Assembly (NCBI GenBank): GCA_040752395.1
Contig: JBFMHD010000186.1
Coordinates: forward strand, 1-5,542
From: JBFMHD01 sp040752395 [NCBI: Candidatus Hydrogenedentota bacterium]
GTDB lineage: Bacteria; JBFMHD01
DNA: 5,542 nt
Direction: 5' to 3'
The notes beneath the pieces were generated by a model. The model saw only the letters and a program-made list of their open reading frames with translations, was not told where the DNA came from and searched no databases. A program made the position numbers and the translations under genes. Each line of letters begins with the position of its first letter. Position 1 is the stretch's first letter. Positions 1 through 5,483 of this stretch are shown here, in pieces.

Positions 1-103
1 AGCAATCAGGATTTAATCTCCAGTAATGAACCTCACCACTTAAAAGTGGTAGTTCTTTTTTATTTAGAATCAATTTTCTGTTTTTGATTTTTATTTTATT
101 CAT
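1..103 (-). CDS. GH35 beta-galactosidase, N-terminal fragment (runs off left edge)
   Basis: The first 34 codons of a gene continue past the left edge of the window. The translation begins MNKIKIKNRKLILNKK and goes on to LPLLSGEVHYWRL at residues 18-30. This matches the start of the GH35 TIM barrel, where family members read 'SGE-hHY-fR-p' shortly after a short strand describing the ligand-free fold. GH35 enzymes release terminal beta-galactose (some act on glucosamine or other sugars). No signal peptide is visible, so this enzyme would be cytoplasmic, unlike the two genes upstream. The start is well supported: AGAGGAG lies at 118-112 with 'ttctat' before the ATG at 103-101. The ATG overlaps the upstream stop (ATGAATAA), which implies translational coupling. 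The catalytic residues lie outside the window, so GH35 is a fragment-based assignment; another clan GH-A family is possible. Confidence 0.72.
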   Translation of the reverse strand, partial: MNKIKIKNRKLILNKKELPLLSGEVHYWRLNPDC

Positions 104-494
104 ATAGAACTCCTCTGAAAAACATTGATACAGCAAAGTTATAAGATTTAGCAAACGCTGTTTCCCATAAAAGCACAACTCTTTTTAATTCTATTAATTT
201 GCCAAAATCATCTGAGTATATTTCAACATAAGCATAAGTGACTTGATTGTCATTGTAACCGAATGCATATTTATCTTCAAAATCTATGATGTTTGTTACC
301 GAAGAATAAATCTTCCATTTTTTGTCAGATGAAACAAAACCGACGTTTGGTCTTAACAGAGCCTCGTCTTTTATATATTCGGTTTCAAGCTCCCCTGAAA
401 AAGGTCCGCATAATAAAAATGTATTTAAAATTCTGGCTTCTAAACTACTGATAAGTAAAGACGTTAATCCGAATAATAAGAGTTTTTTAATCAT
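96..494 (-). CDS. Short secreted protein with first half of a 'CGPF' lectin-like domain
   Basis: This 132-residue protein has a clear signal peptide: MIKKLLLFGLTSLLISS followed by LEA, with probable cleavage after Ala20. Residues 21-95 (ILNTFLLCGPF, then EALLRP, KKWKIY, DF, QVTYAYVEIYS) resemble the opening strands of a beta-sandwich domain often found in exported glycoside hydrolases and related proteins, where 'gPF' is followed by 'EA-i-P-G', 'W', and 'aYa--y--s'. In full domains this leads into a 'GSDDG-k-W-NG' segment. That segment is absent here, and residues 98-132 do not look like the rest of the fold. The gene starts 2 bases after the GH42-like stop without a recognisable Shine-Dalgarno site, so it probably depends on coupling. 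It may be a truncated or frameshifted remnant, or a stand-alone binding protein. The domain match is from memory of the family pattern; function is unknown. Confidence 0.6.
   Translation of the reverse strand: MIKKLLLFGLTSLLISSLEARILNTFLLCGPFSGELETEYIKDEALLRPNVGFVSSDKKWKIYSSVTNIIDFEDKYAFGYNDNQVTYAYVEIYSDDFGKLIELKRVVLLWETAFAKSYNFAVSMFFRGVLYE
110..127 (-). repeat. 18-nt initiation segment, copy at GH35 start
   Basis: Read on the minus strand, CAATGTTTTTCAGAGGAG is identical to 5443-5426 in front of trpF. It contains the Shine-Dalgarno AGAGGAG and an ATG that opens MFFRG; here that frame is the end of the upstream gene (MFFRGVLYE, stop). The start codon of GH35 follows 6 nt later. Confidence 0.55.
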
Positions 495-496
495 AG

Positions 497-2911
497 CTAT
501 TTTATCAACTGAAGTAAGATATTAGATTGAGATTCAATCTCTCTGCTAATCTCGTCGTTTTTACTGTCCCAGGTTAAAGCGTCGTATAAAAATGCTGTAT
601 GCCGCGCGTCATTGGTCTGTATCACGGCTGGATATCCATTTCCAAACCTCGCAAGTATATTATAATTTTTTTCTGTAATGTTATCTAAAAGAAAAACCCA
701 GGGAGAGCTACCCTTTATCCTGTCATCTCCGAAATTAATCTCAACATAGGAATTATTAACCTTTCCGGAATTATTGAATGAGACAGCAAAAAGATATATC
801 TCCTCATTATCAGGAAGTATAATAGCATCGAGCTTTTTCATAATATTACAGCTTATATCAAGATGAGTAATGTAAACGGTTTGATAATTTACTTTTTCTA
901 CTAAACCGAGATGGCCAAAATTCGGTTTTTCAAGATACGAAGGTATAGTTGGAGCAAAGTATCTCTGCTCTATGGTTCTGTCTTGATACAGAAGACTGAT
1001 TTTCTCACAGTAATCACTTGATGAAGATGCTATAAGAAAATGGATTTTAGTGTAATAATCATCTGCAATGTCGATTTTTTGTTTCATACATTTTAAATAA
1101 CAGAGATTATCATCAGCTGTTTTTGATATTATAAAATGAGTATTGCAACTGTTACATATTATTTCGTTGTTCGAAAAAGAGTAATCAAATGGTAGGGGAT
1201 GAGTCTGATATTTATCTTTGAGCTCTTTTGTATTAATACCAAGTATCTCAAGATACCAATCATCAGTCTTATTATACCCTTCATCCTGTTTCCCGATTTC
1301 TCCCAAAGTTATGGTTTTTTTATTTTTTAGTTTTTCCCTATCAGAAAGAGAAATTACCTCAAGAGATCTGCCTGCTAAAATTATCGGTTTATCATCATTG
1401 GGTATCGTATCAGTAAACTTGAAAGGCAACCATAACCTGTCAAAATCAGAGACCAACTCGTTTAGAGGTTTCTTAATGTTTTCATCAGATGGGCTGTCAA
1501 GAGACCGTAAAAGATTATTAATTATCGTTTCATATTTTTTCAGGTATTCGTTTTCAAGTAATAGAACAAGTGTTTGATATTGTTTGGAACTTGCGTAATT
1601 CGATGAAAAAGCATATTGCGGATAATATATCCATACAATAGGTTCTTTTTCCTGTTTTAGATTGATTGGTAATTTTTTGTTTAGAATTTTACCAGTTTTT
1701 GAGATAGGTTTTAAACTCACATCATCATTTATATAACCAAAGTCACCCTCAAACCATTTATCATAAAACTTAAAATAACCCCAACCTGATATAAAAGGTA
1801 AAGCGTTTAGAAGAGTCATCTCGCGTAAATACATTTCAGCTTGATGCTCTTTGTCTCTCAATTTAGATGAGGCATACATCATAGCAGGCGGGGTCTGAGA
1901 AAGAGGGTCTGTTCTAAAACCAGTTTCGCTGATATAAACTGTCAAGTTCTGCAAATCATAGTGAAATTTTGACTGAAAAATTAGTTTAGCTGCAGCTATC
2001 CAGTCACGGTTAAAATGAGCATCACTATTGTAATGCACAGGTGAGATAAAATCTATACCGCTGTTTTGTTTTGTTGATAATGGGAAGAGAAATACTTCGG
2101 GAAGCTCGGTCGTGTAGGTTATGAGGTAATTGGGATTAAGAAATTTCATATATGTGGTCAGTTTTTGAAGGAATGAGTTTATGGACCAGTTTGAGAATAA
2201 AACAAGGTCCAGCCGATACGGTTTTAGACCTATCGCTTCAGCTTTTATTATTTCCTCGTCTTTTAACACATCATTAAAATCTAAATAATTTTTATTCCAG
2301 ATTTTATTAAGAACATCGATAGAATTGTATTTATCTTTGAGCCAGTTTGGAAGATATGAAAGCGTTTTATCACCGATTTTAAGTTTAGAACCATGAAGTG
2401 TTCCGCTCCAATCAGCATCCGCAAGCATCCATCTCTGATCCATATCGATTGCAAGAACGCAGTGATGATTGTTGATTTTTTTGTAAAACTCGTCATAATA
2501 TTTTTTGACTTTATCAAAAAAGGCAGGGTCTAAAAAGTCAGGAAAATTTTCTTCTGCGTATTTGGTTCTGAAATAAACAGCCATTTTATTTTTATCGCAC
2601 CAGGGAAGTATAGAATCAAGAAACAAATCACCGTAAAGGTTTAAAGTGTTAAAGCTGTGTTCCTTTATTATTTCGAGGTCATTTATTACTTTTTCAGGAG
2701 TAAGCTTGATTTTAAGCTCAGGGTTTTCAGGACCATAGGCATATACCATACCGATTGAGTAGAATGTGCTACCGTCGGGATCGCTAAATATCTCTCTGCC
2801 ATCAATATTTTTTAGAGTAAAATACCCTTTATTTTCCCATCCCACAGCAAGCAAACAAGAAGAGGCAAACATTAAAAAAAGGTGTATGACCAGAATGTCA
2901 GTTTTTTTCAT
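497..2911 (-). CDS. Exported GH42-like glycoside hydrolase (clan GH-A), possible altered acid/base
   Basis: The chosen product has 804 residues. ATG at 2911 is preferred over the in-frame ATG at 2998 because it gives a signal peptide (MKKTDILVIHLFLMFASS, then CLLAVG) and because the promoter lies between the two. The order is signal peptide, short lead-in, TIM barrel (about 50-410), flavodoxin/amidotransferase-like region, and a C-terminal beta region ending 'ILARFGNGYPAVIQ', as in GH42 beta-galactosidases. GH42-like landmarks are 'WLKDKYNSIDVLNKIWNK' at 190-207, 'LDLVLFSNW' at 234-242, 'YISETGF' with Glu329 as expected nucleophile, and 'WGYFKFYDKWFEGDFGY' at 377-393. The acid/base position, normally Asn-Glu after strand 4, reads Asp158-Gln159 in 'AIDMDQRW'. 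Four cysteines (586, 589, 604, 608) form a CxxC-x14-CxxxC cluster. No Shine-Dalgarno site precedes the start. Family placement is good; substrate and activity are uncertain. Confidence 0.8.
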   Translation of the reverse strand: MKKTDILVIHLFLMFASSCLLAVGWENKGYFTLKNIDGREIFSDPDGSTFYSIGMVYAYGPENPELKIKLTPEKVINDLEIIKEHSFNTLNLYGDLFLDSILPWCDKNKMAVYFRTKYAEENFPDFLDPAFFDKVKKYYDEFYKKINNHHCVLAIDMDQRWMLADADWSGTLHGSKLKIGDKTLSYLPNWLKDKYNSIDVLNKIWNKNYLDFNDVLKDEEIIKAEAIGLKPYRLDLVLFSNWSINSFLQKLTTYMKFLNPNYLITYTTELPEVFLFPLSTKQNSGIDFISPVHYNSDAHFNRDWIAAAKLIFQSKFHYDLQNLTVYISETGFRTDPLSQTPPAMMYASSKLRDKEHQAEMYLREMTLLNALPFISGWGYFKFYDKWFEGDFGYINDDVSLKPISKTGKILNKKLPINLKQEKEPIVWIYYPQYAFSSNYASSKQYQTLVLLLENEYLKKYETIINNLLRSLDSPSDENIKKPLNELVSDFDRLWLPFKFTDTIPNDDKPIILAGRSLEVISLSDREKLKNKKTITLGEIGKQDEGYNKTDDWYLEILGINTKELKDKYQTHPLPFDYSFSNNEIICNSCNTHFIISKTADDNLCYLKCMKQKIDIADDYYTKIHFLIASSSSDYCEKISLLYQDRTIEQRYFAPTIPSYLEKPNFGHLGLVEKVNYQTVYITHLDISCNIMKKLDAIILPDNEEIYLFAVSFNNSGKVNNSYVEINFGDDRIKGSSPWVFLLDNITEKNYNILARFGNGYPAVIQTNDARHTAFLYDALTWDSKNDEISREIESQSNILLQLIK

Positions 2912-2968
2912 AGTGGAATTATATAATGCAAATTTGATACCATTCTTTATATTTACTCTATTAGTTAG

Positions 2969-2998
2969 ATTATTTATGAAAACGTTTTCATACGTCAA
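2969..2998 (-). promoter_or_regulatory. Sigma-70-type promoter of the glycoside hydrolase operon
   Basis: Read on the minus strand, TTGACG (2998-2993; 5 of 6 matches to the -35 consensus) and AATAAT (2974-2969; 5 of 6 to the -10 consensus) are separated by 18 bp. Transcription would start near 2962 and leave a leader of about 50 nt before the ATG at 2911. An A-rich stretch lies directly upstream (3029-2999 read on the minus strand) and could serve as an UP element. A second possible -10, TATAAT at 2923-2918, sits 6 nt before the ATG and would give a leaderless transcript, but it has no convincing -35 box. Confidence 0.6.
2975..2992. promoter_or_regulatory. LacI-family-type operator, perfect 18-bp palindrome
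   Basis: TATGAAAACGTTTTCATA is a perfect inverted repeat centred on a CpG. It fits the LacI/GalR/CcpA-type operator pattern (TG-aAA-CG-TTt-CA). It occupies exactly the spacer between the -35 and -10 boxes of the minus-strand promoter, so a bound regulator would block RNA polymerase. The regulator gene is not in the window. Sugar-responsive repression of the hydrolase operon is an inference from the operator type and the genes downstream. Confidence 0.72.
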
Positions 2999-3070
2999 GT
3001 TATTTTTTTTATTTTTCTTTTCTTTTTCTGTGTCTCATGTTTCAGTGGAGCAGTATAATATTATTTTATC

Positions 3071-3209
3071 TTAAAGTGCTACTGCTTCTCTAAAATCAGT
3101 TACAGGTACTGTAATGGTCCTTATTGCCTTCTCTTTGACCATAGCTATTCTTTCCACAATTTTGACAAATTCCTACAGGAACATTCTCAATTATTACTAA
3201 TTCTCCATA
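3071..3209 (-). pseudogene. Remnant of YgiT-type zinc-finger antitoxin (frameshifted, truncated)
   Basis: Two minus-strand reading frames together resemble a small YgiT-type zinc-finger protein, the antitoxin type paired with MqsR-like or DUF4258 toxins. From 3209 one frame reads YGELVIIENVPVG then ICQNCGK, the typical 'ViENVPa-vC--CGe' segment with the second CxxC. The continuation lies in another frame, ERIAMVKEKAIRT then ITVPVTDFREAVAL, ending at the TAA at 3073-3071. The 'VPV-dF--A' tail is characteristic of the family. About 8 residues between the two parts are missing, consistent with a small frame-disrupting deletion. An in-frame TAA at 3212-3210 closes the frame upstream, and the N-terminal CxxC part (about 30 residues) is not found. 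No partner toxin is visible. The gene is not functional. Confidence 0.66.
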
Positions 3210-3302
3210 TTACATAACATTTAAAAACTAATTATAAAAATAAATTGCATTTTTTATTAAAATAGTTAAACTGGATATAAATATTTAAGCGAGGTGAAAA
3301 CA

Positions 3303-3527
3303 ATGAATTATAAGATAACTGTTGTTATAGAGAAAGATAATAATGGTTTTTATGCATTCTGTCCTGATTTGGAAGGCTGTCAGACACAGGGAGACACTTT
3401 AGATGAAGTTAGAGTCAATATAAGAGAGGCAATAAATTTATATCTTGATTCAATGTCCGAAGAAGAAAAACAAGAAATGTTAAGTAAAGAAATATTGACT
3501 GAAGCATTGGAGGTACAAGTTGGTTAA
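3303..3527 (+). CDS. hicB: HicB-family antitoxin (short form)
   Basis: This 74-residue protein starts MNYKITVVIEKDNNGFYAFC and continues PDLEGCQTQGDTLDEVRVNI, then REAINLYLDS. It is the standard HicB N-terminal fold: a first strand, 'G-y-a--PdL-Gc-tqGdTl-Ea', and a helix 'nI-eAi-lyl'. HicB normally binds and neutralises the HicA mRNA interferase and represses its own operon. At this length there is no room for a separate C-terminal ribbon-helix-helix domain; the acidic tail (SEEEKQEMLSKE) follows directly. The ATG at 3303 is preferred because GAGGTG (3291-3296) provides a ribosome site 6 nt before it; the in-frame GTG at 3294 lies within that site. The adjacent hicA is truncated, so this antitoxin appears orphaned. 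Confidence 0.85.
   Translation: MNYKITVVIEKDNNGFYAFCPDLEGCQTQGDTLDEVRVNIREAINLYLDSMSEEEKQEMLSKEILTEALEVQVG
3509..3514 (+). promoter_or_regulatory. Shine-Dalgarno site for hicA remnant
   Basis: GGAGGT lies inside the end of hicB, 5 nt before a TTG codon at 3520-3522. It fixes the hicA start at that TTG, overlapping hicB by 8 bases, the usual tight coupling of a hicB-hicA pair. Confidence 0.65.
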
Positions 3528-3591
3528 GTTGCTCCGACTGACAGCTTCAGAAGTTGAATCATTATTATTTAAAAAAGGGTTTCACTATTAA
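3520..3591 (+). pseudogene. hicA: hicA toxin remnant, first 23 codons only
   Basis: Starting at TTG (3520) the frame reads VKLLRLTASEVESLLFKKGF followed by HY and TAA at 3589-3591. This is the first third of a HicA mRNA interferase ('p-LpRlta-EVe-lL-k-GF'). The following part, containing the catalytic His in the 'GSHH' segment and the rest of the dsRBD-like fold, is missing. HicA proteins are normally about 60-80 residues. The truncation point lies 9 bases before the tRNA-Pro gene, so the lost 3' part was removed in an event whose edge lies at the tRNA. The toxin should be inactive. Confidence 0.75.
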
Positions 3592-3600
3592 AATTACACT

Positions 3601-3680: not shown

Positions 3681-3818
3681 AAGTTAAAAATAAAAAGTGG
3701 CGAAATGCTGCCAGAACTAAAGATAAATGACCTGTTATATGCTGAAAACATAGGGGCTTATACCATAGTTTCAGCCACGTGTTTTAACGGTTTCCCGCCT
3801 GCAAGAGTAGTATATTAA
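3681..3818 (+). pseudogene. C-terminal remnant of ornithine/arginine/DAP-type decarboxylase
   Basis: An open frame from 3681 to the TAA at 3816-3818 reads KLKIKSGEM, then LPELKINDLLYAENIGAYTI, then VSATCFNGFPPARVVY. The end 'LPEL-vgDll-feN-GAYt-----FNGFp---v-y' is the signature C-terminus of fold-type III PLP decarboxylases (ornithine, lysine/arginine-type and diaminopimelate decarboxylases). The Tyr and Phe-Asn-Gly-Phe segment closes the active site in that family. Only about 40 of the usual 370-420 residues remain; the PLP-lysine barrel is absent. The ATG at 3705 is internal to the old gene and is not a credible start. It lies just after the tRNA-Pro and converges on the agmatinase gene. 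The 'GAYT---S-FNGF' wording favours ornithine/arginine-type over DAP-type, but this is not decisive. Confidence 0.75.
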
Positions 3819-3849
3819 TTTTGTATCCCATCAATTATAGGTGGAATTA

Positions 3850-3869
3850 AGAAGCAAGAAGCAAGATAA
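3850..3869. repeat. Direct repeat copy 1 flanking trpF-agmatinase block
   Basis: AGAAGCAAGAAGCAAGATAA here matches AGAAGCAAGAGGCAAGATAA at 5464-5483 in 19 of 20 bases, same orientation. This copy lies 18 bases beyond the agmatinase stop and is itself built of a GAAGCAA-type tandem; similar purine-rich text (GGAAGAAGTGAGAGG) continues to 3885. It could be a dispersed intergenic repeat or a recombination scar. Confidence 0.5.
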
Positions 3870-3887
3870 CGGAAGAAGTGAGAGGTA

Positions 3888-4757
3888 TCAGATTTTTAAT
3901 AAAGTCTTCAGGTAGATCATACTGAAGATTTCGTAAAGAAGCTGGGCAGCTGTGAAATCAGACCCTCTGTAAAATCTGTCAGGTATCAGTTCTACAAAAT
4001 CTAAACCTATAACATTTTTTTTATTTATAATTATTTTAATTATTTCAAGTCCCTGATAGTAGAATAGACCGCCGGGCACAGGTGTCCCGGTTGACGGGAA
4101 AACACTCGGGTCAAACCCATCGCAATCGATTGATAAATAAATATTATCGTTAAGTTTTTTAAGAACATCAAGGAGAGCTGTTTCATCCCATTTTTCAGGT
4201 TTTAGATGAAATACTCTGTTTTTATTCTTTTTTACATATTGGTATTCTTCTTTACAGTAACTACGTGCACCAATGATACATAATTTATGGTTTTCAGATA
4301 TCCGTCTTGAGACAGATGCGTGGGAATATTCTGTGCCTTGATAAGAGTCACGCAAATCAAGGTGTGCATCAATTACTATTACATCAAATTTTATTTTTAA
4401 TTTATCCTGATGGGCTTTAACCACTGGATATGATATCGAATGTTCGCCACCGAGTGTACATAATATTTTATTTGTTTGTATATATTTAAGAGCCTGTTTA
4501 TAAATATTTTTCATCATATTCTTTACTGAGCTTAAATCGAGTACTGGTGGGTCACAAATGATGAATCCCATCTTGCTTGAATCTTTTTCTAAATACGAAG
4601 AAAAATATTCGACTTGCTGTGATGCCTTAAGTATAGAATAAGGCGCTTCAGCTGTGCCGGACATATAAGATACTGTTGACTGATATCCGCAGGGTAATAT
4701 CCGAACAAATGATTCTGTAAAACTTTTTTCTGGTATATCAAGAAAACTTAGATTCAT
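3888..4757 (-). CDS. speB: Agmatinase-type ureohydrolase
   Basis: This 289-residue protein belongs to the arginase/agmatinase superfamily, which hydrolyses a guanidino group to urea with a binuclear Mn centre; agmatinase makes putrescine from agmatine in the cytoplasm. All metal-ligand motifs are present: LGGEHS with His106, IDAHLD with Asp130, His132 and Asp134, the substrate-loop SHAS with His146, and SIDCDGFDPS with Asp211 and Asp213; Glu256 follows in 'DFVELIPD'. The 'GTPVPGG' segment at 224-230 is typical of agmatinases rather than arginases. Length is normal. The ATG at 4757 lies 9 nt after the trpF stop, and the weak ribosome site AAGG overlaps that stop, so translation is probably coupled to trpF. 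A decarboxylase remnant just downstream on the opposite strand supports a polyamine role. A guanidinobutyrase-like or other ureohydrolase specificity cannot be excluded. Confidence 0.88.
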   Translation of the reverse strand: MNLSFLDIPEKSFTESFVRILPCGYQSTVSYMSGTAEAPYSILKASQQVEYFSSYLEKDSSKMGFIICDPPVLDLSSVKNMMKNIYKQALKYIQTNKILCTLGGEHSISYPVVKAHQDKLKIKFDVIVIDAHLDLRDSYQGTEYSHASVSRRISENHKLCIIGARSYCKEEYQYVKKNKNRVFHLKPEKWDETALLDVLKKLNDNIYLSIDCDGFDPSVFPSTGTPVPGGLFYYQGLEIIKIIINKKNVIGLDFVELIPDRFYRGSDFTAAQLLYEIFSMIYLKTLLKI

Positions 4758-5423: not shown

Positions 5424-5425
5424 AT

Positions 5426-5443
5426 CTCCTCTGAAAAACATTG
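5426..5443 (-). repeat. 18-nt initiation segment, copy at trpF start
   Basis: CAATGTTTTTCAGAGGAG on the minus strand is identical to the copy at 127-110. Here the ATG inside it is in frame with trpF (MFFRGD before the Met of MRVKVCG), and the AGAGGAG serves as ribosome site for the ATG at 5423. Confidence 0.55.
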
Positions 5444-5448
5444 TAACT

Positions 5449-5482
5449 ATAATAATATCAAGTAGAAGCAAGAGGCAAGATA
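5449..5482 (-). promoter_or_regulatory. Possible promoter of trpF-agmatinase operon
   Basis: On the minus strand, TTGCCT followed after 18 bp by TATTAT lies just upstream of the initiation segment of trpF, with a TATAGT also nearby. The -35 is weak and overlaps the purine-rich repeat, so this is a tentative call. Confidence 0.25.
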
Positions 5483-5483
5483 A
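5464..5483. repeat. Direct repeat copy 2 flanking trpF-agmatinase block
   Basis: AGAAGCAAGAGGCAAGATAA, one base different from the copy at 3850-3869 in the same orientation. The two copies lie about 1.6 kb apart and enclose trpF and the agmatinase gene with nothing else complete between them. Confidence 0.5.

What the first reader, a model, noticed from the sequence alone, without database searches (positions are those of the whole stretch)
2969..2998. A perfect LacI-type palindrome exactly fills the promoter spacer of a glycoside hydrolase operon
TTGACG and AATAAT are separated by 18 bp, and all 18 form the perfect palindrome TATGAAAACGTTTTCATA. The operator pattern is that of LacI/GalR-family regulators (established), and its position predicts repression by direct occlusion (inference). 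This gives a searchable motif for the regulon of an uncharacterised sugar regulator in this lineage, whose gene is not in the window.
Basis: partly seen in the sequence, partly recalled or inferred. Interest (0 to 1): 0.6.

Follow-up and report, generated by a model that had tools for sequence, protein, structure and literature searches.

The report
Sugar-repressor operator inside a promoter
A short mirror-symmetric DNA site, of the kind that sugar-sensing LacI-type repressors bind, lies exactly between the two promoter boxes of a set of sugar-cutting enzyme genes, where a bound repressor would keep RNA polymerase off; this is an ordinary type of gene switch in a little-studied bacterium.

Summary
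On the minus strand, TTGACG (2998-2993) and AATAAT (2974-2969) flank exactly 18 bp, TATGAAAACGTTTTCATA, a perfect palindrome. Dinucleotide shuffles give 0.052 perfect 18-bp palindromes per window, 0.004 with a central CG.

The operon encodes a GH42-like glycosidase, a short accessory protein and the start of a GH35-like gene. No LacI or GntR gene was recognised in the window, and its genome is not held. Of three phyla searched, only that of G009 (a record labelled Auribacterota) held GH homologs. There, non-coding DNA at 24 LacI-gene loci holds 24 CG-centred near-palindromes against 1 GC-centred. Several adjoin TTGACA promoters; the closest half-site matches the window's 9/10. This supports a LacI-type operator.

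The window's motif defines no regulon in those 44 genomes: 10 sites with up to 2 mismatches, 8 overlapping ORFs, control 7. No relative's site was seen in a spacer as here, and in G170 the homologous gene follows a GntR/LacI-sensor chimera with a direct repeat.

Verdict: probably a functional LacI-type operator repressing by occlusion; a new member of a known kind.

The parts
2993..2998 (-). -35 box TTGACG
   Evidence: 5/6 to TTGACA; 10/12 together with the -10 box
2975..2992 (.). Operator: perfect 18-bp palindrome TATGAAAACGTTTTCATA, central CG
   Evidence: comparison with LacI-linked palindromes in relatives
2969..2974 (-). -10 box AATAAT, directly adjoining the operator
   Evidence: 5/6 to TATAAT
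497..2911 (-). GH42-like glycoside hydrolase, 804 aa, apparent signal peptide (judged by eye); first gene of the operon
   Evidence: PF02449 E 3.4e-6; homologs in G170 (49% over residues 10-581) and G146 (four matching segments, 36-51%)
96..494 (-). Second gene, 132 aa, starts 2 nt after the GH stop; matches the first part of a 473-aa protein with an F5/8 type C domain that follows the GH homolog in G170, and proteins behind two GH homologs in G146
1..103 (-). Start of a third gene, GH35-like (MNKIKIKNRKLILNKKELPLLSGEVHYWRL...), runs off the window, preceded by AGAGGAG
   Evidence: translation; PF01301 E 0.023, profile positions 1-24, below cut-off; a GH35 gene also lies in the G170 cluster
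2918..2923 (-). Alternative -10-like TATAAT with 6 nt between it and the GH start codon, no recognisable -35 box; would make the mRNA leaderless
   Evidence: no Shine-Dalgarno-like sequence before this ATG, whereas trpF and hicB have one (by eye)

Best explanation
The 18-bp palindrome is the operator of a LacI/GalR-family repressor encoded outside the window. Without the inducing sugar a repressor dimer sits on the -35/-10 spacer and competes with sigma-70 RNA polymerase for the same DNA; when the sugar binds, the repressor leaves and the GH42-like / accessory / GH35-like operon is transcribed from a start site near 2962. Shown: the palindrome, its exact fit between two promoter-like hexamers, the gene order, and in related genomes the association of LacI-gene loci with CG-centred palindromes, several on core promoters. 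Inferred: that a LacI-HTH protein binds it, that it represses, the start site, and the effector (a sugar, perhaps a galactoside).
For: Perfect even palindrome with central CG, expected 0.004 per window; single copy; exact abutment with a 10/12 promoter; [quoted passage not shown] In related genomes 24 of 42 non-coding self-complementary palindromes at 24 LacI loci are CG-centred, against 27 of 117 in the coding DNA of the same loci and 4 of 17 in non-coding DNA of 13 other loci (Fisher p 9e-5 and 0.02, orthologous copies not collapsed). 12 of the 24 have TTGAC on one strand 27-50 bp before their centre (no control was made for this count). The operon with two tandem lacI genes in G170 and G171 carries TAGTAAAACGTTTTCCTA and in G172 TAGTAAAACGTTTTCCCA; the two halves of the first agree with the window's half-site in 8/10 and 9/10 bases. 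The core nearly equals the RegPrecise consensus for the LacI-family protein CcpA of Streptococcus thermophilus, ATGAAAACGTTTTCAA (passage in PMC6090898). PMC7804116 (passages) says that earlier work found strong repression from operators in the spacer and that such an operator competes directly with RNA polymerase.
Against: The window's genome is not held, so neither a lacI gene nor a second site could be sought. No relative was found to conserve this site: it is absent upstream of the four GH homologs whose start is held (one in G170, three in G146), and G146 has no PF00356 match. In 44 genomes, sites with up to 2 mismatches are hardly more common than the reversed control (10 against 7) and 8 of 10 overlap ORFs. 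None of the 24 CG palindromes at relatives' LacI loci has TTGAC where the window has it, 15 bp before the centre, and 9 of the 24 LacI loci have no CG palindrome. The GH42-like gene of G170 follows a GntR-HTH regulator. [quoted passage not shown] AATAAT is not a strong -10 box.
Confidence: 0.72

Rival explanations
1. The palindrome is bound by a GntR-HTH / LacI-sensor chimera (AraR-like, named from recall), not by a LacI-HTH protein; the outcome, sugar-relieved repression, would be the same.
For: In G170 the GH35 and GH42-like genes flank such a chimera (PF00392 + PF13377); G170, G171 and G172 each have several full-length matches to it. One near-palindrome with a CG centre, ATTAAAAAACGTTTTGTAAT, overlaps the start of the G170 GH.
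Against: The promoter next to the chimera gene in G170, G171 and G172 is TTGACA...TATATA followed by a direct repeat ACCAGTA..ACCAGTAA, not a CG palindrome (read by eye). One-mismatch matches to ACCAGTAA in the window (2 on plus, 4 on minus) do not lie in 2900-3010. At 13 other loci, 9 of them with a chimera match, only 4 CG-centred non-coding palindromes were found against 24 at LacI loci (19.9 against 33.6 kb of non-coding DNA).
Confidence: 0.1
2. The palindrome is a cre site of a CcpA-like global catabolite regulator of the LacI family rather than of a local sugar repressor.
For: 15 of 16 bases agree with the S. thermophilus CcpA consensus (PMC6090898; counted by eye).
Against: The GH homologs found lie in a phylum far from the Gram-positive bacteria that use CcpA (the use of CcpA is recalled); only one such site in the window and no excess in 44 genomes.
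Confidence: 0.07
3. The operon is transcribed from the TATAAT at 2923-2918 as a leaderless mRNA; the palindrome then lies about 64-81 bp upstream of the start and acts as an upstream (activating or looping) site, not by spacer occlusion.
For: Perfect TATAAT 6 nt before the ATG and no Shine-Dalgarno-like sequence before the GH start, while trpF and hicB have clear ones (by eye).
Against: No -35 box at 16-18 bp and no extended -10 (by eye); TATAAT is common in DNA of 33% G+C; the TTGACG-18-AATAAT pair abuts the palindrome exactly.
Confidence: 0.06
4. A MerR-type activator site: MerR-family regulators bind dyads in long (19-20 bp) spacers and activate by twisting the DNA (recalled).
For: A dyad that fills the spacer is their hallmark; the spacer is one base longer than the 17-bp optimum (recalled).
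Against: The spacer is 18, not 19-20; the AACGTT centre is the one found repeatedly at LacI genes in relatives.
Confidence: 0.03
5. Chance palindrome or decayed site without function.
For: About 0.05 perfect 18-bp palindromes are expected per window; the region upstream seems to hold gene remnants; no relative was found to conserve the site.
Against: Central CG, the LacI-type core and the exact promoter fit together make chance unlikely.
Confidence: 0.05

Closest known systems
LacI-family operators as catalogued by comparative genomics (PMC4052901, passages)
   Same: Even palindrome, central CG, 18 bp, 30-140 bp upstream of a carbohydrate operon.
   Different: Regulator unknown; the passages read do not mention this lineage.
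CcpA cre of Streptococcus thermophilus, ATGAAAACGTTTTCAA (PMC6090898, passages)
   Same: 15 of 16 bases identical; CcpA is a LacI-family protein.
   Different: Different kind of bacterium; no evidence for catabolite control here.
Engineered spacer-operator promoters, Pspacer library of lacUV5 (PMC7804116, passages)
   Same: LacI operator placed between -35 and -10, competing with RNA polymerase.
   Different: Natural here; the spacer is 18 bp and the whole palindrome fits, whereas the 21-bp lac operators were trimmed to 17 bp; unrelated host.
Tandem-lacI operon of G170/G171/G172 with TAGTAAAACGTTTTCCTA or TAGTAAAACGTTTTCCCA
   Same: Half-sites 8/10 and 9/10 identical, CG-centred, behind a TTGACA promoter (read in G170 and G171) of an operon that in G170 encodes a GH2-like protein.
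   Different: TTGACA lies 39 and 42 bp before the centre (G170, G171), so the operator follows the -10 region instead of filling the spacer; other genes.

Membership tests
LacI/GalR-family operator | Even palindrome of 16-22 bp | tested here: met
   18 bp, 9+9 without mismatch
LacI/GalR-family operator | CG at the centre | tested here: met
   AACGTT centre; PMC4052901: 1173 of 1251 regulators with even palindromes
[quoted passage not shown]
   64-81 bp upstream of a GH42-like gene
LacI/GalR-family operator | Cognate lacI-type gene in the genome | not testable with these tools
   No whole genome held; none among the five window ORFs scanned; in the related phylum over cut-off in 12 of 44 genomes, 0 matches in G146, 6 in G170
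LacI/GalR-family operator | Site conserved upstream of orthologous operons | tested here: not met
   Absent before the GH homologs of G170 (1) and G146 (3 with their start held); these are distant (36-51% identity), so the evidence is weak
LacI/GalR-family operator | Regulator binds the site | not testable with these tools
   Needs purified protein
MerR-type spacer operator | Spacer of 19-20 bp (recalled) | tested here: not met
   18 bp
GntR/LacI-sensor chimera operator as proposed for G170-172 | ACCAGTAA-type direct repeat after the -10 box | tested here: not met
   No copy with up to one mismatch in 2900-3010; such copies lie elsewhere in the window

The most novel reading that the evidence does not exclude
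A glycosidase operon whose genes are shared between lineages has changed hands between two unrelated types of sugar regulator. In G170 the GH42-like gene follows a GntR-HTH/LacI-sensor chimera with a direct-repeat site after the -10 box; in the window the operon has a LacI-type palindrome that occupies the whole spacer, a placement not seen at the LacI-linked promoters of the relatives examined.
Probability: 0.3. Interest if true: 0.35.

Novelty: new member of a known kind. Interest (0 to 1): 0.2.

Why it matters
It gives a concrete, testable operator for a sugar operon of an unassigned, probably uncultured lineage, and the comparison suggests that LacI-linked CG palindromes on core promoters can be recognised in the related phylum. 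That would let regulators be paired with target genes there from sequence alone. It does not change how LacI-type repression is understood.

Tried and rejected
GH protein search of genome contigs found no relative. A 65-aa stretch of SpeB matched 322 relatives of which the best 80 were kept, from many phyla; the best full-length SpeB match among them was 44%. Of the 80 loci I passed 20 on; 18 genomes were held and none had the GH. The phyla of G001 (0 of 77) and G002 (0 of 39) were empty; the phylum of G009 gave 4 of 44, two strong (G170, G146) and two weak (G144, G171). The lineage of the window stays unassigned: TrpF is at best 49% identical in those 44 genomes and SpeB 39% in the 8 of them searched, so 'Auribacterota' is only where the nearest GH homologs found so far lie. 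A literature search for that name listed one paper, which I did not open.

Motif as a phylum-wide regulon: rejected for these 44 genomes (the single exact 14-bp core lies inside an ORF). Viral contigs: 5 stretches on 4 contigs with the exact 18-mer, none overlapping an ORF of 60 aa or more, against 1 with a GC-centred control, also outside such ORFs; the two on one contig are followed by T-runs. I drew nothing from this. RNA hairpin or terminator: the site is not in the scanner's terminator list and no T-run directly follows the stem; on the plus strand one starts about 10 nt later; rejected. The near-palindrome at the start of the G170 GH overlaps its start codons; not counted as an operator in the argument, though it is one of the 4 CG-centred palindromes of the 'other loci' group. 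Palindromes counted include orthologous copies, so the p values are too small. The 24 LacI loci are a part of the PF00356 matches, chosen mostly from the best-scoring ones.

Full report
What is there. The window (5542 bp, 33% G+C) holds on the minus strand a GH42-like glycoside hydrolase (497-2911, 804 aa, PF02449 over its cut-off), a 132-aa ORF 2 nt downstream (96-494), and overlapping that the first 34 codons of a GH35-like gene at the edge (1-103; PF01301 E 0.023, below cut-off). Further right lie a HicB-like antitoxin, tRNA-Pro(TGG), speB (agmatinase) and trpF. No LacI or GntR gene was recognised among the five ORFs scanned; two other ORFs of at least 80 aa, overlapping the GH gene or the operator on the plus strand, were not scanned.

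The finding. On the minus strand TTGACG and AATAAT enclose exactly TATGAAAACGTTTTCATA. Under dinucleotide shuffling a perfect 18-bp palindrome occurs 0.052 times per window and one with a central CG 0.004 times (2000 shuffles). A promoter of this quality with an 18-bp spacer is common (3 observed, 1.4 expected per window), but its exact abutment to a given site has a chance of about 2.5e-4. The coincidence was noticed after the fact, so these numbers are guides.

Type of site. [quoted passage not shown] this site meets all three. PMC6090898 (passages) gives the RegPrecise consensus ATGAAAACGTTTTCAA for CcpA, a LacI-family protein, in S. thermophilus; 15 of 16 bases agree by eye. A full-text search of the held library for the 14-base core found only that paper.

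Relatives. The window's genome is not held. Of three phyla searched, homologs of the GH were found only in the phylum of G009, whose record (L058) is labelled Candidatus Auribacterota: 4 of 44 held genomes match, strongly G170 (49% over residues 10-581) and G146 (four matching segments, 36-51%), weakly G144 and G171. In G170 the order is GH35, a regulator with a GntR DNA-binding domain and a LacI-type sensor, GH42-like, and a 473-aa protein with an F5/8 type C domain whose first part matches the window's 132-aa ORF (43% over 92 residues); two GH homologs of G146 are also followed by a match to it. So the same three kinds of gene occur together in the window and in G170. TrpF and SpeB of the window are no closer than 49% (44 genomes) and 39% (8 genomes) in this phylum, so I do not assign the window to it.

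LacI operators in that phylum. PF00356 is over its cut-off in 12 of 44 genomes, with 5-6 matches in each of G170-G172 and none in G146. At 24 LacI loci that I fetched (a part of the matches, mostly the best-scoring), non-coding DNA (33.6 kb) holds 24 CG-centred, 1 GC-centred, 6 TA-centred and 11 AT-centred near-palindromes (8+8, at most one mismatch); coding DNA of the same loci holds 27, 25, 30 and 35. At 13 other loci (19.9 kb non-coding) the counts are 4, 0, 5 and 8. 9 of the 24 LacI loci have no CG-centred palindrome, and orthologous copies are not collapsed, so the Fisher values (9e-5 and 0.02) are too favourable. TTGAC starts 27-50 bp before the centre in 12 of 24 (no control made), for example TTGACA-18-TATAAT running into ATTCGTAACGTTACGAAT in G154 and TTGACA-17-TATAAT running into AATGTAAACGCTTACATT in G155. 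The operon with tandem lacI genes has TAGTAAAACGTTTTCCTA in G170 and G171 and TAGTAAAACGTTTTCCCA in G172; in G170 it encodes a protein with a GH2 domain over its cut-off and one with a sub-threshold GH76 match. Its two half-sites agree with the window's in 8 and 9 of 10 bases. This is the main new support for the LacI reading.

What does not fit. Sites with up to two mismatches to the window's palindrome occur 10 times in 8 of 44 genomes; the reversed control occurs 7 times; 8 of the 10 overlap ORFs of 60 aa or more. The exact 14-bp core occurs once, inside an ORF. The four GH homologs whose start is held (one in G170, three in G146) lack the palindrome; G170 has only a near-palindrome over its start codons. 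Behind the chimera gene in G170, G171 and G172 the next promoter carries a direct repeat of the form ACCAGTA..ACCAGTAA (second copy ACCGGTAA in G170), as I read it from the printed sequences; in G170 the gene that follows is the GH42-like one, in G171 and G172 it is another gene. So the homologous GH in G170 is probably run by a different regulator. In the relatives' promoters with a clear TTGACA box that I read the operator overlaps or follows the -10 region, and none of the 24 palindromes has TTGAC 15 bp before its centre as in the window.

Mechanism. A repressor dimer bound to the whole spacer would cover DNA that sigma-70 polymerase must span (recalled) and so compete with it. PMC7804116 (passages) says that earlier work found strong repression from spacer operators and that they compete directly with polymerase; [quoted passage not shown] Whether repression happens here, and which sugar relieves it, is inference. 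A less likely alternative is a leaderless transcript from TATAAT (2923-2918), 6 nt before the start codon, which has no -35 box; the start codon itself has no Shine-Dalgarno-like sequence (by eye).

Verdict.

Noticed in passing
window 3303-3595 (+): HicB-like antitoxin gene (PF15919) followed by what looks like a HicA start that stops after about 22-23 residues, directly before tRNA-Pro: a toxin-antitoxin pair whose toxin gene looks cut off (HicA named from recall; no Pfam match for the short piece).
   Followed up: partly
window about 3700-3817 (+): Open stretch ...NDLLYAENIGAYTIVSATCFNGFPPARVVY* resembling the end of an ornithine/diaminopimelate-type decarboxylase (recalled; no Pfam match), next to the agmatinase gene: possible remnant of a polyamine gene.
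   Followed up: partly
window about 3100-3210 (-): Short open stretch with a zinc-ribbon-like ICQNCG motif (MqsA/YgiT-like by recall; the only Pfam match is a sub-threshold Mcm10 zinc-binding one) between the operator and hicB: perhaps another gene remnant.
   Followed up: partly
window about 3848-3870 and 5459-5483: AGAAGCAAGA(A/G)GCAAGATAA-type repeats in two intergenic places (by eye).
   Followed up: no
window 111-128 and about 5424-5445: The same CAATGTTTTTCAGAGGAG precedes the GH35-like start and trpF: shared leader or ribosome site.
   Followed up: no
L138 about 10788-10840, L187 about 4415-4470, L188 (minus strand, just after the gene that ends at 4216): Direct repeat of the form ACCAGTA..ACCAGTAA after a TTGACA...TATATA promoter, kept in G170, G171 and G172 downstream of a GntR-HTH/LacI-sensor chimera gene: candidate operator of that regulator.
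   Followed up: partly
L143 7276-9588, L147 3952-6251, L148 15905-18174: Two LacI-family genes in tandem in the later part of an operon (GH2-like/TPR protein in G170) preceded by TAGTAAAACGTTTTCCTA or near it, in three genomes.
   Followed up: partly
L081 2304 and L085 5959: Two copies of the exact 18-mer on one 237-kb viral contig, both outside ORFs of 60 aa or more and in similar flanks.
   Followed up: no
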